In this document: positions 1,428 through 39,404 of the stretch, piece after piece
Layout of the letters: every line of letters begins with the position of its first letter
Numbering within the stretch: the first letter of the stretch is position 1
NCBI GenBank assembly: GCA_007376535.1
Contig: VMGK01000009.1
Coordinates: 1 to 46,286, forward strand
Direction: 5' to 3'
Length of the DNA stretch: 46,286 bases
Source of the DNA: Candidatus Berkelbacteria bacterium Licking1014_7
GTDB lineage: Bacteria; Patescibacteriota; UBA1384; GWA2-35-9; CG2-30-39-44
The notes under the pieces: model-generated
Told to the model about the DNA's origin: nothing
The model's input: the letters and a program-made list of their open reading frames with translations, nothing else
Databases searched by the model: none
Translations under genes and position numbers: made by a program

Positions 1428-1468
1428 AACCCAAATTTGCAAGCCCGTCGGGCTTGCAAATTTGGGTT
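1428..1468. repeat. REP-like palindrome, family 1, copy upstream of RAYT-1
   Basis: Perfect palindrome with 20-bp arms (AACCCAAATTTGCAAGCCCG at 1428-1447 and its complement at 1449-1468) around a single T. It ends 21 bp before the transposase ATG. The same core recurs at 2184-2232 and 24741-24783. Confidence 0.9.
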
Positions 1469-1489
1469 AAAACATACATAATGGTGAAC

Positions 1490-2176
1490 ATGGCAACCAT
1501 CAGAAAAAATCCACTAGTAACCGACGAAGTGTATCATATTTTTAGTCGAAGCATTGCTGATTTTAAGATTTTTAATAATCGAGCGCAATACTTTAGATTA
1601 CAAAACGCATTACAATTTTATCAATTTGCAAATTTACCAATTTGTTTTTCCAGATTTGTTGAAGCAGTTAAAACACTCAGACACGGATACAGGGAACGGC
1701 TATTGGATTTGGTAAGCAATAAAGAAAAATTAGTTGAAATCATTGCATATTGTTTAATGCCAACGCATATTCATTTGATTTTAAAACAATTACAAGACAA
1801 CGGAATTACAAGATTTATGGGTAATTCACTAAATAGTTATAGCCATTATTTTAATTTAAAACATAGACGTAGGGGTCCACTTTGGGAAAGTGAATTTAAA
1901 AATGTATTAGTAAGTAGCGACGAACAACTTTTGCATTTGACTAGATATATTCATCTCAACCCAGTGACAGCTTATTTAGTCGAAAACCCAAAGGATTGGG
2001 AATTTTCATCGTATAAAGAATATATAGGGGAAGTTAAAAATGAAAATAAGATATGTCGATTCGATAATATTCTAGAAATAGAGCCAATAAAGTATATGGA
2101 ATTTACGCTCATCCAAAAAGATTATCAGCGCGAGTTGGCAGAAATAAAACAGCTATTGATAGATAACACTTTTTAG
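1490..2176 (+). CDS. REP-associated tyrosine transposase (RAYT-1, Y1/IS200-like)
   Basis: A 228-residue single-domain Y1 (HUH) transposase. The N-terminal RKNPLVTDEVYHIFSRSI strand is typical of RAYTs; the HUH motif is visible in CLMPTHIHLIL, and the catalytic tyrosine lies in NSYSHYFN. The following RRGPLWESEFKNVLV and LTRYIHLNPVTAYLVENP segments are family hallmarks. Start ATG 1490 is preferred; ATG 1481 would add three residues. The gene sits between two copies of the family-1 palindrome, the usual RAYT/REP arrangement, so these palindromes are the likely substrate. RAYTs act as domesticated or non-autonomous-element transposases that nick single-stranded REP hairpins. No second ORF (TnpB) is present. 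Confidence 0.93.
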   Translation: MATIRKNPLVTDEVYHIFSRSIADFKIFNNRAQYFRLQNALQFYQFANLPICFSRFVEAVKTLRHGYRERLLDLVSNKEKLVEIIAYCLMPTHIHLILKQLQDNGITRFMGNSLNSYSHYFNLKHRRRGPLWESEFKNVLVSSDEQLLHLTRYIHLNPVTAYLVENPKDWEFSSYKEYIGEVKNENKICRFDNILEIEPIKYMEFTLIQKDYQRELAEIKQLLIDNTF

Positions 2177-7707: not shown

Positions 7708-7791
7708 TTTGGATTTTGACATTCATTTGACATTTGCCTGCCCCGTTGCGATAGCTTTCGGGGGAACAATTTGGATTTTGACATTCATTTG
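7708..7791. repeat. 22-bp direct repeat bracketing a REP-like hairpin at the ftsH 3' end
   Basis: TTTGGATTTTGACATTCATTTG occurs at 7708-7729 and again at 7770-7791 without mismatch. Between them lies a 40-bp TGCCTGCCCCG...CTTTCGGGGG element. The element and one repeat copy supply the last codons of ftsH. The arrangement resembles an insertion with a long target duplication, or a slippage product. Confidence 0.75.
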
Positions 7792-10700
7792 CCTTGCCCC
7801 GAAAAGCGCTTTAAATTCCTCTCCCTCAATCGTTTCTTTAATCAAAAGTATTTTAGCGATTTTATTTAATTTATGACGATGCTTTTGCAAAATGATTTTG
7901 GTTTTTTTCTCTGCCTCGCAAATAATTTTTGAAATTTCGTCGTCAATTTTCGCCGCGATTTTTTCACTATATGTTTTATGCTCAGCCAATTCCTTGCCTA
8001 AAAATATCAGTTCTTCGCGCTCGCCGAGTGTCATTGGACCAAGTTTATCGCTCATCCCGTAACGGGTTACCATATCGCGCGCAATTTTGGTCGCCTGTTT
8101 CAAATCATTTGACGCGCCCGTGGTAACGGACTTAAAAATCAATTCTTCCGCCACCCGTCCGCCTAACATTTGGCTGATTTGATCTTCAAATTTTTCTTTT
8201 GAATATAAATGTATATCCTCGCCCGGCAAACTCCAAGTATAACCCAGCGTCAGACCGCGTGAAATAATTGAAATTTTATGCACTGGATCAGTGCCCGGTA
8301 AAATATGTCCGACAATCGCATGCCCGGCTTCATGATAGGCAATAATTTCTTTTTCGTGTTTTGACAATACCCGCGATTTTCGCTCAGGTCCGAGCAAAAC
8401 CTTTTCCACTGCCCAATGCAAATCGCTTTGCGAAATTTCTTTTTTATTATTGCGGGCAGCGAAAATCGCCGCTTCGTTCACCATATTCTTGAGATCTGCG
8501 CCACTCATTCCAGCAGTTCCCGCGGCAATTTTTCCGGTATCAATTTTTTTTGCCATCGGTTTTTTCTGATAATGAATTTTCAAAATCTCCTCGCGCTCTT
8601 TTTTGTCTGGTAAATCCAAAATTACCCGGCGATCAAATCTTCCCGGTCGAAGCAGCGCCGGATCAAGCACATCGGGACGGTTGGTATTCGAAGCGAGAAT
8701 AGGTTTTTCTCCTGCAAAAAAAGCCTCATTTTCACATCCGCACAAGTCGTAAACAAATCCATTAAATGGCAGTTTGGTTACCTTTTTTACAAGGGCTAAT
8801 GGATGTAAACTCCATTGTCTATCTAAGTTATTAAAAGGATTAGTTGTTTTCCAGAATTCTAAACGATAAGCTTTTGATTTTTTAAGCGGCTTTCCATTTT
8901 TAATTCTTCTTCCCTCCCGCGCTTCAAATTCACTAAAAGAAGGCTCGAAACCATGCATTCTCGAAAGCCAGTTCAACTCAAGAAGCAACTGTTTGCTCAC
9001 AGAGATTAAAACTAAATTTCCCTTATTCTTGCCTTTCTTTACAAAACAGCCATCTCCATTAGCATAACCCTTCAAGAAATCAACAAAATATTCTTTCGGC
9101 GCTTCAAAAAGAAAAGCTGGTAAATGTTTATTGTGTGCTCCTTGCCCACAATGATAAGCAAAAAATTCAGCCAAAGGTTTAGAATAATAAATAATATTTA
9201 TGGCGGTTTCCCGATGGTAAATTTTATCCGGCTCTAATCCAAAGATTTCTTTCATTAAAATTTTTATATCTTTAATAATTTCTATTTCATGACTTCCGAG
9301 ACAAAAATCCAATTCCTTACGAGAATACCCTTCGGCTACATAATAGCCAAAAAGACGCATTAGATTTGGGGTTACTTTTACCCTTTCTGGTAATACATCT
9401 TTATGCTGATAATAATTACGGCTTAAAACTCTTGGCTCGCAAATTCCCTGTTGCCATTTGCCAATTGTTCGTTGAGAAAACCCAACTTCTTCCCCAAGTT
9501 TAGTTTGAGAAATCGTGTTAGTCTGAGCTAAAACATATTGATAAATATTTTTTATTGGTTCGGACTTCACAAAGAGTGGCTGCCAGAGTGGGAGCTCAAG
9601 ATTAAATTCAGAATTAAATTCACATGATTTAATTCTCCGAAAACCCTTTCTTTTTTTACCCTCTTTATTAGGAAAACCTACCAAAACATCCCTCGGATTC
9701 ATTTTACAAACATATTTTTTCTTTATAATACCATCCGATGTTTTCACAAAAAGCGAGTGATTGCCGGTAGTTCTGATTTTCCCGCCCAGATACTCAATTT
9801 CATAGATTTCGTTGACCTTGTGGCGAAAAACGCTCTTTACCGGCATAAAAGCGCTCTTACCAAAGTACAGATTATTTTTAAGCAATCTATTGCGGCTGGT
9901 TTTTTTCTCAAATCCCAGAACCTCTATTCCTGAAATGGATTTTTCTATCCCTTCTTCGCCCGTCCGATAATAATCATCAACAAATTCTCCAATGGAAATC
10001 AACTTTACTCCCTGACGAGGATCCCTGATTAAAATTGCCGTATCGCCGGTTACGCTGGCCGCTACAACTACCACTTTGCTATCTACTTCAAATCCATCCA
10101 TTTCAACCAAAATTTGATTTAAGGTCTGCTCCCGTTCATCGTGCGACCCGCCCAGCCCTGACCCCCGTTGGCGACCGATAGCATCTAATTCGTCAATAAA
10201 TAAAATTGCCGGTGCGTTCTTTTTGGCTTTTTGAAAAATGTCGCGCGTGCGCGCCGCGCCCACGCCCACAAACATTTCAACAAATTCAGACGCAGAAACC
10301 GAGAAAAACGGCACCCCGGCTTCGCCTGCCACAGCGCGGGCAATCAAGGTCTTTCCTGTTCCAGGCGGACCAACCAATAAAACCCCTTTGGGAATCTCCG
10401 CCCCCAGACGCAAAAATTTTTGCGGATAACGCAAAAATTCCACCACTTCTTGCAGTTCCTGCTTTGATTCCTGCGCCCCTGCCACATCTGAAAAAGTAAT
10501 TCTATTTTTTCCCTCGTAGAGTTGAGCGCGCGACTTGCCAAAATTCATCGCGCGCATATTGGCGCCTTGCGCGCCTTTAAGCATAAAATATAAAAATCCC
10601 GCTACCAATAAAAATGGTAAAATAACTGTCAGGAAGGTTGGTAAAAAACTGCCTTTTTCTGGATCAATAACTTCAATTTTAACCTTGTCCGCAGTAATTT

Positions 10701-10947
10701 CATAATCAGATAATTTTGCGCCGCTCTCTAAAAAAGCCGAGAATTTTTTGTCCTGATTGTCAGTTGCCACCACTTTACTTTTATCTACTGATAATTCTTT
10801 TATCTCGCCAGACGCCACCATATTTTTAATCTGACTGATAGAAACATTTTCAATATTGGGCGCGCCCGGATAGCCGTACTGATAAAGCGCGATTATTCCC
10901 CCAACAATCAGAATTGTAATAATTATTTGTTTAATTTTTGGGTTCAT
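7723..10947 (-). CDS. ftsH: ATP-dependent zinc metalloprotease FtsH with an in-frame intein
   Basis: 1074 residues: host FtsH plus a 457-residue intein. Host parts: two transmembrane helices (about 7-25 and 102-123) around a periplasmic domain, AAA+ ATPase with Walker A GPPGTGKT (193-200), Walker [10 protein letters not shown] (248-256), second region of homology [10 protein letters not shown] after the intein, and zinc protease HEAGH (872-876) with third ligand D948 in NDLK. The normal sequence VVVVAATNRPDV is split after the second Ala. The membrane-bound hexamer degrades misassembled membrane and regulatory proteins. The last 20 residues ([20 protein letters not shown]) come from repeat DNA rather than the family. 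A long repeat-rich spacer lies upstream. Confidence 0.97.
8686..10056 (-). mobile_element. Intein with LAGLIDADG homing endonuclease in FtsH
   Basis: Residues 298-754 of the FtsH precursor. Block A begins SVTGDTAIL (Ser at position 1); block B is TTGNHSLF (H397); block F is FVYDLCGCE; block G is [12 protein letters not shown] followed by Thr755. Two dodecapeptides mark the endonuclease: [10 protein letters not shown] (532-541) and [10 protein letters not shown] (624-633), with acidic residues in place. Before them [20 protein letters not shown] reads as a helix-turn-helix. Insertion is in the sensor region just before TNRP, a highly conserved nucleotide-binding site. The penultimate residue is Ser rather than the usual His. 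Confidence 0.93.
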
Positions 10948-20688: not shown

Positions 20689-21432
20689 ATGGCTGTCATC
20701 GCAGCGCATCCGGTTGATCTGATTGCGCTTTCGCGCATTGAAGAAAGTTTTTCCGCCCCGCCGGCTGATTATTATTTCAACCGTCGCAAAGAAAATTGTT
20801 TTTTAACCGGCATAACCCCTTCCCCAAACAACAAATATTTTAACCACCTTCTGCTTTCCTATCCGGTTGAATTTGATCTCTTTTTTCATTTTCACACTGA
20901 AAAAATATATTTAGTGGAAATCGGCTCAAAATTAGGAGAAAATTTTGTCTTAAAGCATAAAAATATATTTTTCCCCACTCAAATCACTATTAAAATTCCC
21001 CCGATTAAAACAGAAAAAAATATTTTTAGCGATCCGGTAAAATTAGCAAAAATTATAGAAAAATCGCAAGGCAAAAAAATCTGGAAAGAATTGGAAAAAA
21101 TTTGTCTGAACTGCGGGATTTGCGCTTGGGTCTGCCCGCTTTGTTATTGCTTTTCTATCAATGATGAAATTTCTAGCAGCGGCGATGCATGTAAGCGCTG
21201 CCGACAATGGGACAGTTGCGTTTTGCCCAAATTCAGCCAAATTTCCGGCGGCTATAATTTCCGACCAACTCCCGGAGACCGACTTGACAACTGGTATTAT
21301 CATAAATTTGTCCGCGCGGTGCGCGAGCGGGGAAAAATTGACTGCGTGGGGTGCAATCGTTGCATTGAAAACTGTCCCGCCAAAATCAACTTTCGCAAAA
21401 TAATCAAAAAATTAGCGACAAAGAAAGAATAA
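20689..21432 (+). CDS. hydB: [NiFe] sulfhydrogenase beta subunit (HydB), Fe-S electron-transfer subunit
   Basis: From the first ATG the protein has 247 residues; family members are about 330, and the missing front is encoded upstream without a start codon. Two ferredoxin-type [4Fe-4S] motifs are intact: CLNCGICAWVCP (about 139-150) and CVGCNRCIENCP (219-230), plus CKRCRQWDSC between them. The beta subunit of group 3b hydrogenases and of anaerobic sulfite reductase carries electrons between the NAD(P)H-binding gamma subunit and the delta/alpha pair in the cytoplasm. An internal start could still yield both cluster domains without the N-terminal domain. First gene of the hydB-hydG-hydD-hydA series. 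Confidence 0.85.
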   Translation: MAVIAAHPVDLIALSRIEESFSAPPADYYFNRRKENCFLTGITPSPNNKYFNHLLLSYPVEFDLFFHFHTEKIYLVEIGSKLGENFVLKHKNIFFPTQITIKIPPIKTEKNIFSDPVKLAKIIEKSQGKKIWKELEKICLNCGICAWVCPLCYCFSINDEISSSGDACKRCRQWDSCVLPKFSQISGGYNFRPTPGDRLDNWYYHKFVRAVRERGKIDCVGCNRCIENCPAKINFRKIIKKLATKKE

Positions 21433-21498
21433 ATTTTCAATTTTGATTATTAGACATTTGAAATTTATTTGAAATTTGTTATTTGGATTTTGCCATTT

Positions 21499-22326
21499 AT
21501 GTTAAACCCTTATCTTCCCCAAACCGTAAAAATCATTGATACTTTTCAAGAAACTCCGACCATCAAACGGATAGATTTTAGGGTAAATTTTTCACCAGCG
21601 TTACTTACAAAAAAAATGACTTTTGTCCCCGGACAATTTATTTTAGCCGGTGTCTGGGGCGCGGGCGAAGCGCCATTTGGCTTGACCAATTCTCCTTATA
21701 ATCGAAAAAGGTGGCAAATTATGGTAAGAAATACTGGCGGGCGGGTAACCTCATCGCTTCACCGCCTGAAACCCGGGGATACAATGACTATGCGCGGACC
21801 GTACGGCAACGGCTTTCCGCTTCAAAAAATGACTAACATGGACATCGTCGCCATGGCCGGAGGTTGCGGCATTCCGCCGATTGCCTCGCTAATAGAATTT
21901 ATCACCGTCAATAGAAATAATTTCTCAAAAGTATATTTGGTTTACGGCGCCGGTTCTCCCGAAGAATTTGCCGGAAAATCGCGTTTTACCCACTGGCGCA
22001 ACAAAAAAATCGAAGTTATCCTTACTATAGATAAACCGCAAAAGGGCTGGGCTGGACGAGTGGGATTTGTGTCAGAGCATATCAATAATTTGTCTTTTGA
22101 CGCGCAAAAAACTTATGTCGCAATGTGCGGACCCGGACCAATGTTCGCAGGAACTGCCGCCGCATTTTTGCAACTTGGCGTAGCGGACCAAAGAATTTAT
22201 CTATCAGCCGAAAGAAAAATGAGTTGCGGTATCGGCAAATGCCAGCACTGCACCTGCGGAAAACATTATGTCTGTTTAGACGGTCCGGTCTTTAGTTGGA
22301 ATCAAATTAAAGATATGCATGATTAA
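21499..22326 (+). CDS. hydG: [NiFe] sulfhydrogenase gamma subunit (HydG), NAD(P)H/FAD reductase
   Basis: 275 residues of the ferredoxin-NADP reductase/PyrK family. FAD-binding part about 1-100 (VPGQFILAG, PFGLTNSP, LHRLKPGDTMTMRGPYGNGF), NAD(P)-binding part about 105-230 (DIVAMAGGCGIPPIASLIEF, VYGAGSPEEF, YVAMCGPGPM), and a C-terminal [2Fe-2S] site MSCGIGKCQHCTCGKHYVC. ATG 21499 begins the family-like MLNPYLPQTVKI; the upstream alternative at 21469 is TTG in repeat-like DNA. It exchanges electrons between NAD(P)H and the beta subunit. 66 bp separate it from hydB; 177 bp of inverted repeat separate it from hydD. Confidence 0.93.
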   Translation: MLNPYLPQTVKIIDTFQETPTIKRIDFRVNFSPALLTKKMTFVPGQFILAGVWGAGEAPFGLTNSPYNRKRWQIMVRNTGGRVTSSLHRLKPGDTMTMRGPYGNGFPLQKMTNMDIVAMAGGCGIPPIASLIEFITVNRNNFSKVYLVYGAGSPEEFAGKSRFTHWRNKKIEVILTIDKPQKGWAGRVGFVSEHINNLSFDAQKTYVAMCGPGPMFAGTAAAFLQLGVADQRIYLSAERKMSCGIGKCQHCTCGKHYVCLDGPVFSWNQIKDMHD

Positions 22327-22503
22327 AAAATACAAGGATACAAGAAACAAGATACAAACAAATTTCAATATTCAATTTTCAATTTTAGTTTAGAATTTGG
22401 AAATTGATATTTGTTTGCGTCCTTGTATCTTGGTTATTGTATCTTATTGCATGCACAAATCCCGCACCCTAAAACATTATCGAATCTTAATTCTAATTTA
22501 ATT
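22327..22503. repeat. Long imperfect inverted repeat between hydG and hydD
   Basis: ATACAAGGATACAAGAAACA... (from 22329) through ACAAACAAATTTCAATATTC pairs with GAAATTGATATTTGTTTGCG ... CTTGTATCTTGGTTATTGTA (22400-22441), giving arms of about 40 bp with scattered mismatches. In mRNA this would form a long hairpin inside the operon. No ORF. Confidence 0.65.
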
Positions 22504-23256
22504 ATGAAGCCAACTATTGCCATTTATGATTTTACCGATTGCGAAGGATGCGAAGTCCAACTCATATCTTTACTTGAAGATTTTTTAGAAATTGAAAAAA
22601 GAGTTGAAATTGTCAACTGGCGCTTGGGACAGGAAGATAATCACCAGATACAATTTGATATCTGCATTATTGAAGGAACGCCCATCACGCGCGAAGAACA
22701 AAAATTGTTGCGATCGCTTAGAAAACGATCAAAAATTTTGGTGGCGCTCGGGGCTTGCGCGGCGCTCGGTGGCGTGCCGGCAAGTGTTGACCAAACGCAA
22801 AGAAAAAAATGGCTGAAAAAAATTTATGGCGCAAAGTATAAATCGCGCGGCGACTCTGCCAAACCTTTGTCAAATTTTGTCAAAGTTGATGCGATTATTC
22901 CGGGTTGTCCGGCGACTAAAAAAGACATTTTACGAGCGATTACAGATTTATTAGACGGAAAAATTCCGGCAACACAAAACTTTCCCGTTTGCAAGGAATG
23001 CAAAGCCAACAACAATCCCTGCCGACTCTTAAATAACCAACCCTGTCTTGGACCGGTCTCAATCGGAGGTTGCGATGCAATTTGCGTGTCAGGCGGCGCG
23101 GGATGCTGGGGTTGCCGGGGATTATTGGAAAACGGCAATCTGCCCGCATTTCGCAAAACCCTAGAAAAGTTTATGACAAAACAGGAAATTGAGCAATTTA
23201 TGAGTGTGTTTTTGTCAAACGACCTCATCATTAATAAACCAAACACTAAAACTTAA
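22504..23256 (+). CDS. hydD: [NiFe] sulfhydrogenase delta (small) subunit (HydD)
   Basis: 250 residues, the small subunit of a group 3b-type cytoplasmic [NiFe] hydrogenase. No Tat signal. Cluster ligands: DCEGCEVQ near the N-terminus (proximal cluster), LGACAALGG, IIPGCPA, CKECKANNNPC, QPCLGP and GGCDAICVSGGAGCWGCRG, enough for the usual three clusters. It hands electrons from the alpha-subunit NiFe site to the beta subunit. ATG 22504 is preferred because the family starts just before the (I)YDFTDCEGC segment; an upstream TTG at 22411 falls in repeat DNA. Confidence 0.94.
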   Translation: MKPTIAIYDFTDCEGCEVQLISLLEDFLEIEKRVEIVNWRLGQEDNHQIQFDICIIEGTPITREEQKLLRSLRKRSKILVALGACAALGGVPASVDQTQRKKWLKKIYGAKYKSRGDSAKPLSNFVKVDAIIPGCPATKKDILRAITDLLDGKIPATQNFPVCKECKANNNPCRLLNNQPCLGPVSIGGCDAICVSGGAGCWGCRGLLENGNLPAFRKTLEKFMTKQEIEQFMSVFLSNDLIINKPNTKT

Positions 23257-23485
23257 AGTTTAAAACTAATGTAATTTTGAATTTTAAATTGTGATTTTGC
23301 CTGCCCGCTAATCGCCTGAGCGATAGCGATGGCGGGCGGGAGATTTGCCTGCCCTGCCAGAATGTCATGCCAAAGGCAGATCCGCCTCTGGCGGAAAATC
23401 TACTTGTAAATTCCTGCAATCAGGATATTGCAAGAGATTGAATGCAGGTGGGAGATTTGAGATTTGAATTTTGGGACTATAGATT
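23257..23485. repeat. REP-like elements between hydD and hydA
   Basis: 229 bp holding an inverted copy of the GCCTGCCCGCTAATCGCC...GGCGGGCGGG element (23298-23343), TGCCTGCCCTGCCAGAATG (23346-23364; also near 10971), a TCCGCCTCTGGCGGA hairpin (about 23380-23394), CTGCAATC/GATTGCAG-like inverted words and GAGATTTGAGATTTGA tracts. No ORF and no SD before hydA. Confidence 0.7.
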
Positions 23486-24730
23486 ATGAACATCATCGCA
23501 AAAATTGAAGGGCATGGCGCGCTGGACATTGACTTCTCAGCCAAAAAAGCCAAACTTAGAATTTTGGAAGGCGAACGGCTGTTTGAAGGAATTTTGGTTG
23601 GACGACCTTTTGACCAAACCTACTGGATTACTCCCAGAATTTGCGGCGTTTGCCCGATAGTCCACGCGCTGGCTTCAGTCAAAGCGGTTGAACGGGCATT
23701 TCGCGCGCAAGTAAGTTCTCAAACCATTCATTTGCGATCGCTTTTATTTTGCTCACAAATGATCCAATCGCACATTTTACATCTAGTATTTTTAAGTTTG
23801 CCTGATTATCTTGGACTTGATCGCGGCACAGAAATTAAAGACCAACACCCGCGTTATTTTTCATTCGCGCTGAATATTAAAAAGGCGGCTGATTTTATCG
23901 CAGAAACAATCGGCGGCAGAGCAGTGCATCCCACCACTATCACTGCTGGCGGTTTTTTCCGTCTGCCTAAAATTTCCCAAATTAAAGCCATTAAATCGCA
24001 ACTGATGCAGATATTAAATGACGCGGAAGGGGTCTTAAATTTAGCCCTGTCGCTTGATTATCCGCAGCTTAAAAATCCCTGCGAATATCTGTCCGCTTGC
24101 CCGTATGACGAAAATGAATACCCCATTTATAATTATCAAAAAATATTGTCTAATCGCGGTTTTGGTCTTAAAATAGAAAATTATCAAACCGAAATCAAAG
24201 AAAAAGTTGTTAGCAATTCCACGGCAAAATTCGCGCGCCGAAAAGGTAGTGGCTTTATGGTCGGCGCGCTGGCGCGCATGGCGCTTTTTAGCGATCGCTT
24301 TTCGCCGCTGATCAAGAAATATTTGGAAAAAATTGATATTGAAGAAATGAAATTTAATCCATTTTACAATAATTTAGCGCAGCCGTTTGAAATCTTGCAT
24401 TACACTGAGCAGGGAATTTTGCTCTGCGATAAAATCTTGCGCGACGGTTTAGACGAACGACCAACGGTCGGTTTCAAAATCAAAAGCGGTCGCGGCGTCG
24501 GCGTGATGGAAGCGCCGCGCGGCACGCTTTATCATGACTATACTTTTGACGCTAAAGGCAATGTTCTTAAAGCCAATATCATCACGCCGACGGTGCAAAA
24601 TTTAACCCATATTGAAGAAGACGGCAACGCGCTTTTACTCACTTGCGATCGCTCAAAAAATGAATGTATTGATCTGATTAAAATGCTCATTCGGGCTTAT
24701 GATCCCTGTATCACTTGCAGTGTGCACTAA
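23486..24730 (+). CDS. hydA: [NiFe] sulfhydrogenase alpha (large, catalytic) subunit (HydA)
   Basis: 414 residues. The NiFe site ligands are complete: L1 motif RICGVCPIVH (51-60; Cys53 and Cys56) and L2 motif DPCITCSVH (406-414; Cys408 and Cys411). Glu8 in IEGHG is also conserved. The enzyme interconverts H2 and protons and in group 3b may also reduce sulfur, coupled to NADP(H), in the cytoplasm. The protein ends exactly at the His of the L2 motif, the point at which large subunits are normally cut by a maturation protease, so no C-terminal peptide is present. A family-1 REP palindrome begins 10 bp after the stop. Confidence 0.96.
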   Translation: MNIIAKIEGHGALDIDFSAKKAKLRILEGERLFEGILVGRPFDQTYWITPRICGVCPIVHALASVKAVERAFRAQVSSQTIHLRSLLFCSQMIQSHILHLVFLSLPDYLGLDRGTEIKDQHPRYFSFALNIKKAADFIAETIGGRAVHPTTITAGGFFRLPKISQIKAIKSQLMQILNDAEGVLNLALSLDYPQLKNPCEYLSACPYDENEYPIYNYQKILSNRGFGLKIENYQTEIKEKVVSNSTAKFARRKGSGFMVGALARMALFSDRFSPLIKKYLEKIDIEEMKFNPFYNNLAQPFEILHYTEQGILLCDKILRDGLDERPTVGFKIKSGRGVGVMEAPRGTLYHDYTFDAKGNVLKANIITPTVQNLTHIEEDGNALLLTCDRSKNECIDLIKMLIRAYDPCITCSVH

Positions 24731-24740
24731 TTAACTTAAC

Positions 24741-24783
24741 TAACCCAAATTTGCAAGCCCGACGGGCTTGCAAATTTGGGTTA
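24741..24783. repeat. REP-like palindrome, family 1, orphan copy after hydA
   Basis: Perfect 21-bp arms (24741-24761, 24763-24783) around one A, with the same core as the RAYT-1 flanks 22 kb away. The central base differs (A instead of T), which equals the inverted orientation. It could end hydrogenase transcription. Confidence 0.9.
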
Positions 24784-24898
24784 ATCCAATGTATTAAAAA
24801 ACAAAAATTATTGCTCTATATTTTTTTTCTGCTAATATAGATATTAGACTTGCAAAAACTCTTTTGCTGGCGCATCATTGAAAACAGGAGGAAACCCA

Positions 24899-25693
24899 AT
24901 GAACGCAAACCAAAACGCCAAATTGGAAATGCAAAACATTTGGATAGGCAAGCCAGCAGCGCTAAAACTATTACTGCGCGTCGGCTTATCCTGCCTTGCC
25001 CAACCGCGCACCCTATCAAATCAATTTCAATTATTGTTTACGCTTGATACTCCGACACTTTATGACTTATTTATTATTATTCCAACGATTGCTATTGACT
25101 TACTGAAATACTGTCACAAAAAAGAACAAACTACCATTGAAAAAAATGACATTTTAGAACTTTTAGCCAGTCGCGATCATCTTACTCCCTCAATAGAATA
25201 TCTTAAAAACCCGGAACGTTCTATGACACCAGAAAACCAAATGTATTCAGGACGGCTTGCAGAATTGGGTATTGACCTTTCCACTCCTTGCAACCAATCT
25301 GTTTTCTTGTACAGCGATCTGCTTACTTTTGGACGGATCAGGCAGATACAACAAAACGAACATACATTAGCCGAAGTTATGTCAGAGACCAAACCGGGCA
25401 CAATTCTGCAAAATGTTGGTGTTCCGGAAGATTTACAAAAGGATGCCGTGCCCAGCGCGCGAGTTTGCACGCATTTTGGAATTGTGGTATTTGTCGGACA
25501 ACCTCACCATAATTCTTTACTCAACCGCTTACTGGCCGGACAAAAACATTGCCAAAACAAAAATATTTTTAATGATTTACTGCCAAACATTGACTATCGG
25601 CATTTTTGCCCAGCGGAAAATCCAGATCAAAAAGACCCCAAAAACGGAGCCAATCTAATTGAATGGTCCAGACCGCTGCTAACTAATAAATAG
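24899..25693 (+). CDS. Protein of unknown function beside hypC
   Basis: 264 residues from ATG 24899, chosen because AGGAGG lies 7 bp upstream. No transmembrane helix is convincing; a hydrophobic stretch at about 48-70 (TLYDLFIIIPTIAIDLL) is probably buried. Segments such as MTPENQMYSGRLAELGIDLS, RVCTHFGIVVFVGQPHHN and HCQNKNIFNDLLPNIDYRHF hold several His and Cys residues, but no known motif is apparent. I do not recognise the family. It lies between hydA and the convergent hypC, overlapping hypC's 3' end by 11 bp, so a hydrogenase-related job is possible but unproven. Confidence 0.7.
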   Translation: MNANQNAKLEMQNIWIGKPAALKLLLRVGLSCLAQPRTLSNQFQLLFTLDTPTLYDLFIIIPTIAIDLLKYCHKKEQTTIEKNDILELLASRDHLTPSIEYLKNPERSMTPENQMYSGRLAELGIDLSTPCNQSVFLYSDLLTFGRIRQIQQNEHTLAEVMSETKPGTILQNVGVPEDLQKDAVPSARVCTHFGIVVFVGQPHHNSLLNRLLAGQKHCQNKNIFNDLLPNIDYRHFCPAENPDQKDPKNGANLIEWSRPLLTNK

Positions 25694-34385: not shown

Positions 34386-34640
34386 TTATTGTAAACTAAT
34401 CATTTTTACAATATCTTGGGTTAAGATGTACCCATTGCAATGTTTAAGCAAGCCCAAATACGAGGACAGGTTTTTTTTATTGACTCTTTTTAGCATCCGA
34501 TTCTTGGTTTTTGTGCGCAGTATTCGATGATGTGGCAACATAACATAGCCCAAGAAATCGATTCCTTGACCCAATTTTCGAACAATTGTTTTTCTTTCGT
34601 GCAATTTCCACTTCAGGTTATCTTTAAGAAAAATTCTACA
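34386..34640 (-). pseudogene. C-terminal fragment of a DGR-type reverse transcriptase
   Basis: About 85 residues of homologous sequence (the frame can be read from ATG 34688): CRIFLKDNLKWKLHERKTIV, QGIDFLGYVMLPHHRILRTK, and SSYLGLLKHCNGYIL. GIDFLGY and SYLG..KH.N.Y are hallmarks of the thumb end of reverse transcriptases of diversity-generating retroelements and relatives. The palm with the YxDD motif (over 200 residues) is missing. It abuts a variable-protein C-terminus, indicating that a deletion removed everything in between. Confidence 0.75.
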
Positions 34641-34861
34641 AAGATTCCCGCCTAGATGGGTTTCTTTTGAAGTCGCTCTTGGCGACATTGTTTTTAAGCA
34701 AGCGGTCTTGCCTGAAAGCCAGCCAGGAGTGTCTATATTTCCTTTTGCCCTATGGGCCAGCCGTAGCCGACCCTATTTTGGGCATAAAGGATATAGAGAT
34801 TTCGGCGGTTTTGATCCGTAGACCAAAACTCACTACCTACTCTCAGGATGGATATTATCAT
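34636..34861 (-). pseudogene. C-terminal remnant of a DGR variable protein (or its template repeat)
   Basis: From ATG 34861 the frame reads LRVGSEFWSTDQNRRNLYIL, YAQNRVGYGWPIGQKEI and stops at 34733; after a one-frame shift near 34745 it continues YRHSWLAFRQDRLLKNN to a stop at 34636. The FWS...N...Y.L.AQN and HSWLAFR layout is that of DUF1566/C-lectin-type variable regions. Many codons at the expected variable positions (CTC, TAT, ATC, GCC, GTC, GGC, TAC) end in C or T, as when AAC/AAT codons are diversified. It lies directly upstream of the reverse transcriptase fragment. Confidence 0.5.
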
Positions 34862-34973: not shown

Positions 34974-35933
34974 CTAAAGGCCAATCTCCACAGGAACTCC
35001 CTCGACGGACGCACCGACATGGCCGAAGGCAACCCCGGGACACCAGCGCCGATAGACGCCGAGACCGTAGCCGAGACCCCAGTGGACACGGAGCGGGCCA
35101 CCGCCGTAAATTGTCGCAGTACGCGACCAGACAGAGAATCGGAACTTCCTGCCGGCGGTGATGGCAACTAGATTGCACATCAGGGCATCACGACCGGCGG
35201 TCGCGATCGGCATTCTGCGCTTGCGAGCGACTCTTTGCTGGTTGTTCCAGCTCAAGCCGGTCATCCAGCGAGGGAGCTCGTAGCCGATCACCCAGGTGGG
35301 CTCGGTGACTGCCGGCTCTTCTGCCCAAGCATAGTCCTTGCCCGAAAACCATCCGGACCACAGGATGTCCGAACGGATGGTACCGGCCACGAACTCGTCG
35401 TGCTTGACGCCCCACCAGTTGCGCTGGTTGGTGAGCGAGGTCGGCACTCCGCCAACTTCTGGCAGAGCCAACCAAAGAACTGGGATCGTTGCCCACTCTG
35501 TGGTCTGGCAAAACTTCACCAGCTCCTCCATTTGCCCTACCGTGTAGGGAACGGGAATCTGCGGGCACCAGCCCGCCTTGAGCTTCAGCGGGTTGCGGTT
35601 GCACCGATTTTGCCCCTGCATCGCCTTCTCCCACTCCTTGGGACCGATAACGATCAGTCCCTTGATGCAACGGAAGGGGCGGAGCGTGTCATCGACGGCG
35701 GTGTCCTGCTGGGCAACCACCGGATTGCCTTGGAAGGGGCGGAGCGTGTCATCGACGGCGGTGTCCTGCTGGGCAACCACCGGATTGCCTTCGATGAGCA
35801 ACTGCATTTCTCCCATCACGATGTCAAAGTCGACACCGCCGATACCGAACCTTAGACGATCGTACAGCTCTTTCTCTCTTTTGCTGTACAATCCCAACTG
35901 CTCGTCAGTAACAACCTGTCGTCCGGTCGTCAT
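34974..35933 (-). CDS. GC-rich orphan protein with a recent 20-residue tandem duplication
   Basis: 319 residues, strongly different in base composition from its neighbours. AGGAGGGAGGG lies before ATG 35933. N-terminal TDEQLGLYSKREKELYDRL, then two exact copies of QGNPVVAQQDTAVDDTLRPF-type repeat (60 bp period), a Trp-rich middle (NQRNWWGVKHDEFVAG, WSGWFSGKDYAWAEEP, WVIGYELPRWMTGLSW) and a Gly/Trp-rich end (RFSVWSRTATIYGGG). No membrane segment. From memory its opening (TDEQ..LYSKREKELY ... IIEGN..VAQQD) recalls a paralogous family restricted to Parcubacteria; function unknown. It has its own promoter, leader hairpin and terminator. Confidence 0.78.
   Translation of the reverse strand: MTTGRQVVTDEQLGLYSKREKELYDRLRFGIGGVDFDIVMGEMQLLIEGNPVVAQQDTAVDDTLRPFQGNPVVAQQDTAVDDTLRPFRCIKGLIVIGPKEWEKAMQGQNRCNRNPLKLKAGWCPQIPVPYTVGQMEELVKFCQTTEWATIPVLWLALPEVGGVPTSLTNQRNWWGVKHDEFVAGTIRSDILWSGWFSGKDYAWAEEPAVTEPTWVIGYELPRWMTGLSWNNQQRVARKRRMPIATAGRDALMCNLVAITAGRKFRFSVWSRTATIYGGGPLRVHWGLGYGLGVYRRWCPGVAFGHVGASVEGVPVEIGL
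35672..35791. repeat. Perfect 60-bp tandem duplication in coding sequence
   Basis: 35672-35731 and 35732-35791 are identical at all 60 positions. The duplication is in frame and gives two copies of a 20-residue segment ending AVDDTLRPF. Lack of any substitution implies it is very recent or unstable. Confidence 0.92.
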
Positions 35934-36183: not shown

Positions 36184-36702
36184 TTACGCTATCCGCCAGC
36201 TGGCGGAGTAATGGGATTTTACTGCGCCTCGCTCTTTCTTCTGAAAGGGCGGTTTTTTCTTTTCCTCTTTGGCTTGGGCGGCTGCCTCTTTCTGCTTTTT
36301 GATTTTCTCAAGTTCTTCTTCTAACGTTGGCTCTTCCCAAATTTTCAGGGCTTTTTTCTCTTTATTTAAAGTGATTTTTGAGGACTTAATTGTTTTCAAA
36401 TAATTAAGTTTGGCGCGGGCAACTTTCGAGGTCTTAACTCGCTCAATTTTAATAATGCTGGGTGAATGAAGCGGGAAAGAATACTGAACGGCAATCCCGC
36501 CTGAGGCAATTTTATAAACCGTAAATTGCGCGTCAATCCCTTGGCCGTGTTTAATCGCAATCACCACGCCTTCAAAAATCTGGACGCGCGTTTTCTTGCC
36601 GTCTTGATAACAATGGTGAACTTTAACCCAATCCCCGGGACGGATTTGCGCCGGGTTTTTTTTCAAATGTTTTTTTGAGTATTCCAATATCTTTTGATTC
36701 AT
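36184..36702 (-). CDS. rplS: Ribosomal protein bL19 with extended C-terminus
   Basis: 172 residues; typical bL19 is about 115. The core is clear: NPAQIRPGDWVKVHHCYQDG, RVQIFEGVVIAIKHGQG, ASGGIAVQYSFPLHSPSI and KIERVKTSKVARAKLNYL. bL19 lies at the 30S-50S interface. After residue about 115 comes a charged coiled tail (EEELEKIKKQKEAAAQAKEE) common in CPR bL19, and the final SHYSASWRIA is encoded by a TCCGCCAGCTGGCGGA palindrome. ATG 36702 is chosen because a -10 box ends seven bases upstream, predicting a leaderless mRNA. Confidence 0.96.
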   Translation of the reverse strand: MNQKILEYSKKHLKKNPAQIRPGDWVKVHHCYQDGKKTRVQIFEGVVIAIKHGQGIDAQFTVYKIASGGIAVQYSFPLHSPSIIKIERVKTSKVARAKLNYLKTIKSSKITLNKEKKALKIWEEPTLEEELEKIKKQKEAAAQAKEEKKKPPFQKKERGAVKSHYSASWRIA

Positions 36703-36709
36703 AAAAATT

Positions 36710-36738
36710 ATTATAACAAATCTTTTACTGCAAATCAA
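36710..36738 (-). promoter_or_regulatory. Leaderless promoter of rplS
   Basis: Minus strand TTGATT (36738-36733), 17-bp spacer, TATAAT (36715-36710), seven bases, then ATG. Confidence 0.8.
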
Positions 36739-36740
36739 CC

Positions 36741-36771
36741 CCATATACAAACCTCGTAGGTTTGTATATGG
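36741..36771. repeat. REP-like palindrome, family 2, copy downstream of RAYT-2
   Basis: 14-bp arms CCATATACAAACCT (36741-36754) and AGGTTTGTATATGG (36758-36771) around CGT. It lies 13 bp beyond the RAYT-2 stop. Confidence 0.88.
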
Positions 36772-36784
36772 TAACAGGTATGGG

Positions 36785-37462
36785 CTACCCTAAATAGTTC
36801 TCTAAAATGACTTTTTTAATTTTGGCTAATTCGCGCTGACGATTGATTCTTTCTATGCAAAATTTGTAATAACCTTTTTTATCCCTATCTATTAAATGCT
36901 TAAATTTACAAATTTGTATCTTTGAATCAATACGAGTGTATTCCTTAAAAGACGAATATTCCCAATCCTGCGGATTTTTTATCAACCTGGCTGTAACCGG
37001 ATTAAGATGAATATATCTTGTTAAATGCAAAAGTTGCTCGTCGGTTTCAACCAATACAGATTTGAACCTTGATTCCCATAAGGGTCCTTTGCGTTTGTGC
37101 CTGATATTAAAATACCGCGTGTAGCTGTTTAGGGTATCGCTGATAATTTTAGATGTGCCGCCATCAACCAATTGCTGAAGTATAAAATGAATATGAGTTG
37201 GCATTAAACAATAACAAATAATCTCTACTCTTCTTGTTGCTTTTTGAGGGTCGTTATAGTTGTATATGATTTGTTTTCTAGTTCTGCTTCCACTGCGTTG
37301 CAATTCTGAAAAACTCACTTTTTTTTCTTGGCTGTTATAATACAAAAAAGAATATAGGAATCTTTCAAAATCCGCGTCACTATTAAAAATTTTATATCCG
37401 GAAATGCTTCGGCTAATAATATGAAAAATCCCTTCCGTATATAATGGTTTTTTCCTCATCAT
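36785..37462 (-). CDS. REP-associated tyrosine transposase (RAYT-2, Y1/IS200-like)
   Basis: 225 residues if begun at ATG 37462 (MMRKKPLYTE); ATG 37459 or 37474 are alternatives. Same architecture as RAYT-1: RKKPLYTEGIFHIISRSISG, HUH motif CLMPTHIHFIL, catalytic Tyr in NSYTRYFN, then KRKGPLWESRFKSVLV and LTRYIHLNPVTARLIKNP. Protein sequences of the two RAYTs are clearly homologous but differ throughout, and each is flanked by a different palindrome, so they are separate RAYT/REP pairs rather than copies of one element. Family-2 palindromes lie at both ends. Confidence 0.93.
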   Translation of the reverse strand: MMRKKPLYTEGIFHIISRSISGYKIFNSDADFERFLYSFLYYNSQEKKVSFSELQRSGSRTRKQIIYNYNDPQKATRRVEIICYCLMPTHIHFILQQLVDGGTSKIISDTLNSYTRYFNIRHKRKGPLWESRFKSVLVETDEQLLHLTRYIHLNPVTARLIKNPQDWEYSSFKEYTRIDSKIQICKFKHLIDRDKKGYYKFCIERINRQRELAKIKKVILENYLG

Positions 37463-37475
37463 ATTAATAACCATT

Positions 37476-37502
37476 ATATACAAACCTCGTAGGTTTGTAT
37501 AT
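37476..37502. repeat. REP-like palindrome, family 2, copy upstream of RAYT-2
   Basis: 12-bp arms ATATACAAACCT (37476-37487) and AGGTTTGTATAT (37491-37502) around CGT, the same core as 36741-36771. It ends next to the transposase start. Confidence 0.88.
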
Positions 37503-37620
37503 GGTTCAGGTTAGAATCTTTAAAAAAGTGGTGGAAAATGGAAAAATGCAGATAGAACAATCAAAAAAAAATGGCGTAATGTCAAAAAAATATTATAGAT
37601 TGTGTCTTAAAAATGAAGGA

Positions 37621-37864
37621 GGTCGCCGTCCCCCGGGTGAGGGGAACGGCGACCAGAGAACCCGCGCCTGTTGGTGCGAAACGCTTGAGCATGAGCTCGT
37701 GCACCAAGCGGGGTATGACGGGGCGCGGGCGGGGACACCTGAAAGCCCGAAGATCCAGACGGAGTAGTGATTATGATTTCCGTACTCACGTGATCTTTTC
37801 GGGACTTTCAGGTTGCGAGCCCCCGCGCGGGCGGGCTCACTTGTCCCAAAGGGGTGGGGCTCGC
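37621..37864. ncRNA. Tiled four-hairpin GC-rich RNA element
   Basis: Four helices fill the segment with little left over: GGTCGCCGT/ACGGCGACC (37621-37629, 37646-37654); CCCGCGCC/GGCGCGGG (37661-37668, 37722-37729) enclosing TTGGTGC/GCACCAA (37671-37677, 37701-37707); ACCTGAAAG/CTTTCAGGT (37737-37745, 37805-37813) with further pairs CCGAAGATC/GATCTTTTCGG inside; and GCGAGCCCC/GGGGCTCGC (37815-37823, 37856-37864). ORFs here are low-complexity shadows. On the minus strand it is the 3' region of the 88-residue gene; it could instead be a stand-alone RNA on either strand. Confidence 0.5.
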
Positions 37865-38130
37865 TAGGACGGCAAAGTGGCGATCACCTTACCGTCGTGC
37901 TGAATCCCCCACAACCTTAATGACCTGCCGTTTCCCTTGAATATCGGTCTCATCAAGGGTGGATTAGCGTGGTCACTGAGGTGGGGGGCGGCGATGTCAA
38001 CCAAGGTATCCAGATCACTTTTCTGGAACTTTGCCCCATTGGCAACAGCTGCCTGTCGCAATTGAGCTAGTGTTCCGTCTTTTGATCCGTTGACAGTGAT
38101 CTCGGCGCCGATAACCTCTTCCATTTCCAT
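37864..38130 (-). CDS. Small protein of unknown function next to structured RNA
   Basis: 88 residues from ATG 38130, with AGGAGGTGAGAAGAG directly upstream. Sequence: acidic start (MEMEEVIGAEITVNG), helical middle (GTLAQLRQAAVANGAKFQK, SDLDTLVDIAAPH) and beta-like end (RSLRLWGIQHDGKVIATL). No membrane helix; no family recognised. Its stop codon touches a 244-bp array of four hairpins, and a second hairpin block lies upstream, so its mRNA would be structured at both ends. Confidence 0.65.
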   Translation of the reverse strand: MEMEEVIGAEITVNGSKDGTLAQLRQAAVANGAKFQKSDLDTLVDIAAPHLSDHANPPLMRPIFKGNGRSLRLWGIQHDGKVIATLPS

Positions 38131-38186
38131 CTCTTCTCACCTCCTCTCTCTTCTCAAGTCCCCGGACGACCCTTGCGCCCGATCCC

Positions 38187-38217
38187 GTTTTCCGCCGAGA
38201 GGCGAATTACGGAAAAC
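38187..38217. other. Hairpin with GAGA tetraloop
   Basis: GTTTTCCG (38187-38194) pairs with CGGAAAAC (38210-38217); CGCC-GAGA-GGCG (38193-38204) is an alternative inner hairpin with a GNRA-type loop on the plus strand. Confidence 0.5.
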
Positions 38218-38283
38218 CCGAGAGAGGGATGATTAGTTGGACTTACCTCCATTCCTTATCCTTTCGTGTTTCTTTCTGCCATT

Positions 38284-38379
38284 CCCCTTTCGGGGGGGTC
38301 GGGGCAACGGGCAAAGCCCGTATGGGAGCATCACTCCCATCTTCTCGAGTTCCTCCATATCCTCTCGAGAAATCCCGAC
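38284..38379. ncRNA. Cloverleaf-like four-way junction RNA
   Basis: A closing stem GTCGGG/CCCGAC (38298-38303, 38374-38379) encloses three hairpins: ACGGGC-AAA-GCCCGT (38307-38321), ATGGGAG-CATCA-CTCCCAT (38322-38340) and TTCTCGAG/CTCGAGAA (38342-38349, 38364-38371). A CCCC-TTTC-GGGG hairpin (38284-38295) precedes it. Short ORFs read through it on the minus strand, one (ATG about 38353, 41 codons, MEELEKMGVMLPYG start) with a GAGAGGAT just upstream, so coding cannot be excluded. Confidence 0.5.
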
Positions 38380-38413
38380 TTTTGACATCTGACATCATCC
38401 TCTCAAAGTACTC

Positions 38414-38474
38414 CCTTTTCTGCTTTTTGGATTTGCCCGAGCCCAAAAAACTAAGCTCAAGCAAGCAGAAAAGG
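38414..38474. other. Long hairpin
   Basis: CCTTTTCTGCTT (38414-38425) pairs with AAGCAGAAAAGG (38463-38474); TTTTTGG/CCAAAAA pairs inside. It continues the hairpin-rich block. Confidence 0.55.
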
Positions 38475-38620
38475 TTGCCGCGATCTTTTGCGACACAATT
38501 GATTACAAGATTTAAGAATTTAGATTTAAGATTTTAGAATATACTAAATTCAGATTAACCTTTATAAACAATCGTCTCGCAAAAAAACTTTTTTATTCTT
38601 CTGCCTAATAGTTTTTCACT

Positions 38621-38977
38621 TTAAAGTTTAACTTTGAGATTTGAGATTTGAGATTTGCCTGCCCCGTATTGCTCCGCCATCTGGCGGAAGCTTTCGGGGA
38701 GATTTGGAATGATATTCACCACGGTCTTTTTTTTCAAATTGCCGTCAAATCGTCTAATTTTTTTATAAATATACTTAACTACCCCGGGCGCAGTGGCAAA
38801 CAAAGTATCATCGCCTCCGCGTCCGACATTCTTGCCAGCATAATATTTACTGCCACGTTGTCTCACTAAAATCATTCCCGCCAAGACATTCTGCCCGCCT
38901 AACTTTTTGACTCCGAGCCGCTTCGCTTGGCTATCTCTGCCTAATTTTGTACTGCCTTTGGCTTTTGTATGAGCCAT
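38621..38977 (-). CDS. rpmA: Ribosomal protein bL27 with repeat-encoded C-terminus
   Basis: 118 residues; usual bL27 is about 85-95. [40 protein letters not shown] and [20 protein letters not shown] are diagnostic; the N-terminal arm reaches the peptidyl-transferase centre. ATG 38977 is set by AGGAGG six bases upstream. After VVNIIPN the residues [20 protein letters not shown] come from a TGCCTGCCCCG...GGCGGAAGCTTTCGGGGA repeat and AGATTTGAGATTTG tract, not from the family. No bL21 gene is adjacent. Confidence 0.95.
38655..38705. repeat. REP-like element within the rpmA 3' end
   Basis: TGCCTGCCCCGTATTGCTCC ... GGAGCTTTCGGGGA-type element with an inner TCCGCCATCTGGCGGA hairpin. Related copies: 7735-7764 (ftsH end) and 43900-43936. 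Confidence 0.7.
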
Positions 38978-39404
38978 GTTCCTCCTTTGGCTAATGCCAA
39001 AGTCGTCAAATGCAAATCTCAAATCTCCCGCCCGCCATCGCTATCGCTCAGGCGATTAGCGGGCAGGCAAAATGACAATTCAAAATGCAAAATGACATTA
39101 TTTTAGTGGCAAATGTCTAAACTCTAAATAAATGCAAAATGCAAATCTCAAATCTCAAAATGCAAAATGCAAAACTCAAAATGACAATTTAAAAATTAAA
39201 AATTATCAGAAACTTTTTAAACTTGGTTATATTGCATATTATACCCACCGATTTTACATTTGTCAAGCAATACGTTAAATTAAAGAAAGATTCTAAAATC
39301 CAACATCCGAAAACTAAAGCAAAAATCACAGAAAAAACAATTTTGGGATTTGGTATTTTAGTAATTGATTAGAAATTAGTCATTAGAAATTAGAAATTTT
39401 TATC
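38978..39404. repeat. Repeat-filled spacer upstream of dnaE
   Basis: 427 bp with the rpmA SD at its left edge, a CCCGCCCGCC...GCGGGCAGGC element (39024-39069), then AATGCAAAATGCAAATCTCA-type tracts to about 39200 and ATTAGAAATTAGTCATTAGA tracts just before dnaE. No ORF and no convincing promoter. Confidence 0.65.

What the first reader, a model, noticed from the sequence alone, without database searches (positions are those of the whole stretch)
37617..38480. Hairpin-tiled GC-rich island: candidate structured RNAs around a small gene
37621-37864 is filled by four consecutive or nested helices, and 38298-38379 folds as a closing stem around three hairpins (cloverleaf-like). Two more hairpins lie at 38187-38217 and 38414-38474. 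An 88-residue gene with a strong SD lies between the blocks on the minus strand. The island sits beside RAYT-2 and differs in GC content. I know of no RNA family with this layout; it may be a new ncRNA, a regulatory UTR pair, or a mobile element with structured ends.
Basis: partly seen in the sequence, partly recalled or inferred. Interest (0 to 1): 0.72.

Follow-up and report, generated by a model that had tools for sequence, protein, structure and literature searches.

The report
Hairpin-wrapped orphan gene beside ribosomal genes
A GC-rich stretch of a tiny Berkelbacteria genome really is packed with RNA-type hairpins, but it looks like one gene unit with folded ends, one of many unrelated orphan-gene inserts found between the same two ribosomal genes in this bacterial class.

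Summary
Block 37621-37864 folds far better than shuffles (z -7.5, 0 of 100, both strands), still about -5.5 without the terminal hairpin. 38298-38379 and 38414-38474 are also significant; 38187-38217 is weak. Strand cues favour minus: the 37621-37654 stem is complete there (one G-U) but has a C-A mismatch on plus, and the leader hairpin is stronger there. The 88-aa ORF has a GGAGG site, but neither it nor the fold has a relative in anything searched, so compensatory changes could not be tested. New here: the island lies in the junction between rpmA (L27) and rplS (L19). Of 53 Berkelbacteria-class genomes with rpmA, the junction is empty (at most 158 bp) in 26, filled (633-2382 bp) in 15, undecided in 12. 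Filled gaps carry mostly unrelated, sense-biased orphan ORFs (20 sense, 3 antisense, 3.4 expected), are GC-richer than their flanks in 13 of 15, and are most structured at the downstream end. Best reading: a minus-strand orphan-protein unit whose hairpins are its 5' leader and 3' trailer/terminator, not a RAYT product. A stand-alone noncoding RNA is not excluded.

The parts
38621..39022 (-). rpmA (ribosomal protein L27) ORF, upstream border of the island; the conserved core ends near 38700
   Evidence: Pfam Ribosomal_L27 2e-30; found in 53 of 55 class genomes
38486..38584 (.). AT-rich 30-nt inverted repeat and degenerate AT-rich repeats between rpmA and island; boundary, no confident promoter
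38414..38474 (-). leader hairpin (12-bp outer stem, nested inner stem)
   Evidence: z -5.3 on minus, -3.3 on plus
38233..38388 (-). possible 51-aa ORF (MSKVGISREDMEELEKMG...), overlapped by a second small frame
   Evidence: 51-aa frame without hit in PHROGs and NCBIfam; the overlapping 73-aa frame without a hit above cut-off in Pfam
38298..38379 (-). closing stem around three hairpins (inside the 51-aa frame)
38187..38217 (-). weak hairpin upstream of the 88-aa ORF
   Evidence: z -2.3
37864..38130 (-). 88-aa orphan ORF, ATG with GGAGG; its stop codon overlaps the first arm of the trailer by 1 nt
   Evidence: no relative
37657..37864 (-). structured trailer: three hairpin domains
   Evidence: z -5.6 minus / -5.4 plus, 0 of 100
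37621..37654 (-). terminator-like hairpin, 14 pairs, then TCCTTCATTTTT
   Evidence: listed as terminator-like on minus; z -6.5 with its flanks
36785..37483 (-). RAYT (Y1 transposase), neighbour, bracketed by its own palindromes at 36741-36771 and 37476-37502
36184..36750 (-). rplS (ribosomal protein L19), downstream border of the rpmA-rplS junction
   Evidence: Pfam Ribosomal_L19 4.3e-28

Best explanation
The island is one minus-strand, GC-rich transcription unit lodged between rpmA and rplS in a Berkelbacteria genome. It encodes one orphan protein of 88 aa and perhaps a second of 51 aa. The hairpins are mainly its untranslated ends: a 5' leader hairpin, and a 3' trailer of three domains closed by an intrinsic-terminator-like stem. 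Most likely the folded ends protect the mRNA and stop or insulate transcription towards the neighbouring genes. It is one case of a class-wide habit: the same junction holds a different orphan insert in many relatives. Shown: the folds exceed shuffles; strand cues; the junction census; the sense bias of SD-led ORFs. Inferred: transcription, mRNA protection, insulation, and that the 88-aa protein is made.
For: Folding z-scores. Minus-strand cues: the 37621-37654 stem is complete with one G-U on minus, with a C-A mismatch on plus, and minus has a T-rich tail; leader hairpin -31.4 on minus against -20.6 kcal/mol on plus. Census of 53 genomes with rpmA: 26 empty, 15 filled, none between 158 and 633 bp, 12 undecided. 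Filled gaps carry 20 SD-led ORFs of 30 aa or more in sense, 3 antisense, shuffles 3.4 +/- 1.8, maximum 9 in 100. Gap GC exceeds flank GC in 13 of 15. In the 14 relatives, 51% of 39 windows in the last fifth of the gap have z below -3, against 7% of 42 rpmA and 0% of 49 rplS windows.
Against: No consensus promoter on the minus strand just upstream of 38480. The T run starts about seven bases after the terminator stem. The other trailer domains fold as well or better on the plus strand. The 88-aa ORF alone is only moderately unlikely by chance (90 of 2000) and has no homologue; its AF2 model has low confidence (pLDDT 61.5). The gap of this genome as a whole (0.42) is not GC-richer than its flank (0.43), because it includes the RAYT and AT-rich spacers. 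In relatives the strongest structure is mostly in the last one to three windows of the gap; a trailer of about 200 nt beyond the terminator is at the high end. Three of the 15 filled gaps have no strictly SD-led sense ORF (G005, G034, G049).
Confidence: 0.5

Rival explanations
1. Block 37621-37864 is (part of) a stand-alone structured noncoding RNA; the small ORFs are incidental or separate.
For: Four tightly packed domains, z -7.5 on either strand. The same genome has another GC-rich unit, G000:C21 (L056:14320-15060), 741 nt, z -7.25 (0 of 30), with TTGACA-17-TATAAT in front and a terminator-like end, and no convincing ORF.
Against: It directly follows the stop codon of an SD-led ORF (1-nt overlap) with no promoter of its own seen; no Rfam match; no relative in 55 class genomes and only chance-level hits in 379 phylum genomes.
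Confidence: 0.2
2. The hairpins are a by-product of foreign or drifted GC-rich DNA rich in short palindromes; no function at RNA level, the ORFs decaying.
For: Palindromes also lie inside a GC-rich coding region of the same genome (M48 peptidase gene, L037:7501-7800, z -4.4 to -4.7). Orphans without homologues and a low-confidence model. Inserts differ even within a genus (G048/G049).
Against: Controls keep dinucleotides, so GC alone does not explain the z-scores. Sense bias of SD-led ORFs. Structure strongest at the gap's downstream end.
Confidence: 0.18
3. The island is a mobile element with structured DNA ends, perhaps moved by the neighbouring RAYT.
For: Adjacent RAYT; empty and filled states of the junction within one genus (G004 7 bp, G005 1028 bp).
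Against: Single copy in the own genome; the RAYT palindromes are different and occur only at its own two borders in the 335 kb examined; inserts in 15 genomes share no ends or DNA beyond 20-31 bp scraps.
Confidence: 0.07

Closest known systems
Structured RNAs found in GC-rich long intergenic regions (Candidatus Pelagibacter ubique screen, PMC2704228; 26-genome screen, PMC8632094; passages of both read)
   Same: GC-rich, highly folded stretch in a small AT-rich genome; PMC8632094 also describes a motif ending in an apparent terminator that may be a structured element in a 3' UTR.
   Different: Those classes rest on homologues and covariation; none was found here, and an SD-led ORF lies inside the island.
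Intrinsic (rho-independent) terminator with an extended structured 3' UTR
   Same: 14-bp GC-rich stem at the end of a minus-strand ORF, followed by a T-rich tail.
   Different: The T run begins about seven bases after the stem; three further domains precede it.
Hypervariable accessory loci between core genes (integration or turnover hotspots; from general knowledge)
   Same: Empty in 26 and filled in 15 of the 41 decidable genomes, mostly unrelated cargo, one within-genus switch.
   Different: Tiny (0.6-2.4 kb), between ribosomal protein genes, no integrase or shared ends seen; contents are orphan small proteins.
RAYT/REP elements
   Same: A RAYT is the direct neighbour and hairpins are present.
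   Different: The island's hairpins differ from the RAYT's palindromes and are not repeated.

Membership tests
Any Rfam family (release 15) | score at or above the family's gathering threshold | tested here: not met
   only four tRNAs in the window
Conserved structured ncRNA class | homologues that keep the fold | tested here: not met
   single-sequence model R1 (196 positions, 65 pairs; one sequence entered twice): only itself in 55 class genomes; in 379 phylum genomes itself plus two hits at per-genome E 0.018 and 0.061, expected by chance in so many genomes
Conserved structured ncRNA class | compensatory base changes | not testable with these tools
   no homologous sequence found
Intrinsic terminator | GC-rich stem followed at once by a U run | tested here: inconclusive
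   stem region z -6.5; listed as terminator-like on minus, but the tail is TCCTTCATTTTT
RAYT-mobilised REP element | same palindrome at RAYT borders and in dispersed copies | tested here: not met
   two copies only, at the RAYT's own borders, none in the island, 335 kb examined
Protein-coding gene (88 aa) | homologue or known domain | tested here: not met
Protein-coding gene (88 aa) | start codon with SD at proper spacing, coding-like base composition | tested here: met
   GGAGG before ATG; GC by codon position 0.55, 0.42, 0.61
rpmA-rplS orphan insert of Berkelbacteria | extra DNA of 0.6 kb or more between rpmA and rplS, sense-oriented orphan ORF, structured downstream end | tested here: met
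Integron gene cassette | attC site and integrase | not tested
   no search made

The most novel reading that the evidence does not exclude
The rpmA-rplS junction of Berkelbacteria is a standing hypervariable expression slot: a ribosomal-gene neighbourhood in which each lineage keeps a different, fast-changing, hairpin-wrapped unit of orphan small proteins (some zinc-ribbon-like) or structured noncoding RNA. In this genome the trailer 37657-37864 would be a functional structured RNA, with a second unit of the same kind, noncoding, at the ftsA-ftsZ junction.
Probability: 0.2. Interest if true: 0.72.

Novelty: new variant of a known kind. Interest (0 to 1): 0.48.

Why it matters
These cells have very small genomes, yet 15 of the 41 decidable ones keep 0.6-2.4 kb of mostly GC-rich, folded, orphan sequence between two ribosomal protein genes where others have a few bases. 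If the units are expressed, they are a position-defined set for asking what fast-evolving small proteins and structured RNAs do in such reduced bacteria, and how such units arise and turn over.

Tried and rejected
Rejected: tRNA or any Rfam RNA; second copy in the own genome; RAYT-derived hairpins; homologues of the island DNA (in one search, 379 phylum genomes, the non-self hits listed were about 16-40 bp and chance-like).

Led nowhere: the 88-aa protein against Pfam, PHROGs, NCBIfam, PDB sequences, plasmids, phages, viral contigs, genome contigs (exact peptide words, then tblastn), 55 class and 379 phylum genomes. AF2 of the 88 aa without alignment: pLDDT 61.5, pTM 0.47, order strand-helix-helix-three strands; too weak for a fold search, none run. 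A regression-based scan of fold energy was confounded at high GC and replaced by shuffles for the 401 windows of GC 0.5 or more, 28 of them below z -4. A self-alignment with wrong locus coordinates was discarded. A first pass of structure in inserts used 13 relatives, seven of them not reaching rplS; one search used the 14 relatives with both borders.

Against my reading: G048 and G049 (one genus) share no insert DNA except 31 bp, so common descent of inserts is not shown; only G042/G043 (E 1e-5) and weakly G002/G005 (E 0.01 to 6e-4, 15-protein set) have related proteins. Zinc-ribbon-like frames by a strict pattern occur in 4 of 15 gaps in sense, 1 antisense, shuffles 0.46 on average, maximum 3 in 200; the frame in G048 has no good start.

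Papers: search listings only for PMC11109978, PMC8723152, PMC6429828 and the others (one search listed none); passages read of PMC8632094 and PMC2704228. Those seven searches showed no paper on these inserts; they cover open-licence PMC text only.

Full report
What was checked. The window is contig C8 of an 806 kb genome in 41 contigs. The finding covers a GC-rich island (about 0.61 at its richest; window 0.413). The block 37621-37864 has z -7.5 on both strands against dinucleotide shuffles (0 of 100), and about -5.5 without its terminal hairpin. The cloverleaf-like 38298-38379 and the hairpin 38414-38474 are also clear; 38187-38217 is weak. The minus-strand island as one 866-nt RNA has z -9.0, 0 of 30.

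Orientation. Two features tell the strands apart. The last stem (37621-37654) is complete on the minus strand with one G-U pair, while the plus strand has a C-A mismatch, and the minus strand gives a terminator-like tail. The leader hairpin is much more stable on minus (-31.4 against -20.6 kcal/mol). The domains between are neutral or favour plus. The SD-led 88-aa ORF is on minus and its stop codon overlaps the trailer by one base. I could not identify a convincing promoter.

Relatives. Neither the protein nor the DNA nor the fold has a detectable relative: class genomes (55), phylum genomes (379), named species genomes, viral contigs, plasmids and phages, Pfam, PHROGs, NCBIfam, PDB. The genome is the only one of its family held.

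The place. The island lies between rpmA and rplS. I used rpmA as an anchor: it is found in 53 of 55 class genomes. Named records show that the class is Berkelbacteria; one member contig of 915,059 bp equals in length and position CP011213.1, Berkelbacteria bacterium GW2011_GWE1_39_12. In the 53 genomes rplS follows rpmA within 158 bp in 26; a gap of 633-2382 bp separates them in 15, this genome included; in 8 no rplS is found in the 2.1 to 4.2 kb read downstream; in 4 the contig ends within 1.4 kb. Empty and filled states occur in one genus: G004 7 bp, G005 1028 bp.

What fills the gap. Gap GC is above flank GC in 13 of 15. SD-led ORFs of 30 aa or more number 20 in sense, 3 antisense, 3.4 expected (maximum 9 in 100 shuffles). 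None of the nine insert proteins from relatives that I scanned reaches a Pfam cut-off; one is weakly zinc-ribbon-like. The contents are unrelated between genomes, except G042/G043 (same family) and weakly G002/G005 (same family). G048 and G049, one genus, hold different inserts. By fifths of the gap the mean fold z in 14 relatives is -1.56, -1.51, -1.36, -1.15, -2.90; rpmA windows give -0.75, rplS windows -0.31. So inserts are moderately structured throughout and strongly at the downstream end; the long trailer of this genome is at the high end.

Other units of this kind in the same genome. In 335 kb examined (window plus the 20 stretches) there are further GC-rich islands, among them L056:14301-15100, between what I recognise from memory as ftsA and ftsZ: TTGACA-17-TATAAT, 741 nt, z -7.25, no convincing ORF, no relative in 55 class genomes. 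It keeps the noncoding-RNA rival alive. An M48 peptidase gene in another island carries palindromes inside its coding region, which keeps the composition rival alive.

Interpretation. I commit to a minus-strand orphan-gene unit with structured ends (0.5). A stand-alone RNA has 0.2, a GC-rich by-product 0.18, a mobile element 0.07. That the ends stabilise or insulate the mRNA is inference from their position and the established behaviour of terminators and 3' hairpins; nothing here measures it.

Known kinds. GC-rich intergenic stretches as a guide to structured RNAs are an established approach (PMC2704228 and PMC8632094, passages read). What is unusual is the repeated use of one ribosomal-gene junction by mostly unrelated orphan units. 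Seven literature searches showed no report of it.

Noticed in passing
L056:14301-15100 (G000:C21), minus strand: 741-nt GC-rich, hairpin-tiled unit with a perfect sigma-70-like promoter and terminator-like end, no convincing ORF, between genes I recognise as ftsA and ftsZ; z -7.25, no relative in the class. A stronger noncoding-RNA candidate than the given one.
   Followed up: partly
34974-35933 (minus): Second GC-rich island: 319-aa ORF with an in-frame tandem duplication near 35678-35797; relatives only in G027 (46%) and G048 (27%) of 55 class genomes. From memory its C-terminus resembles diversity-generating-retroelement variable proteins and 34386-34688 a DGR reverse transcriptase end; Pfam gave no hit for the latter.
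   Followed up: partly
7723-10947 (minus): FtsH with an intein next to its AAA domain (Pfam Intein_splicing 2.4e-9, LAGLIDADG_3 2.4e-7).
   Followed up: no
1454-2176 (plus) and 36785-37483 (minus): Two Y1/RAYT-type transposases; the second is bracketed by a palindrome found nowhere else in 335 kb.
   Followed up: partly
20689-25693 (plus): Genes of a NiFe hydrogenase cluster (Fer4_22 and NiFeSe_Hases in Pfam).
   Followed up: no
rpmA-rplS gaps of G048, G050, G052, G054: Zinc-ribbon-like small frames (two CxxC motifs) recur in otherwise unrelated inserts.
   Followed up: partly
L056:4727-4853 (minus): Cobalamin riboswitch, 38.2 bits.
   Followed up: no
38507-38540 and many places in the own genome: Degenerate AT-rich interspersed repeat (GATTTAAGAATTTAG-like) at the island's rpmA-side border, with many partial copies.
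   Followed up: no
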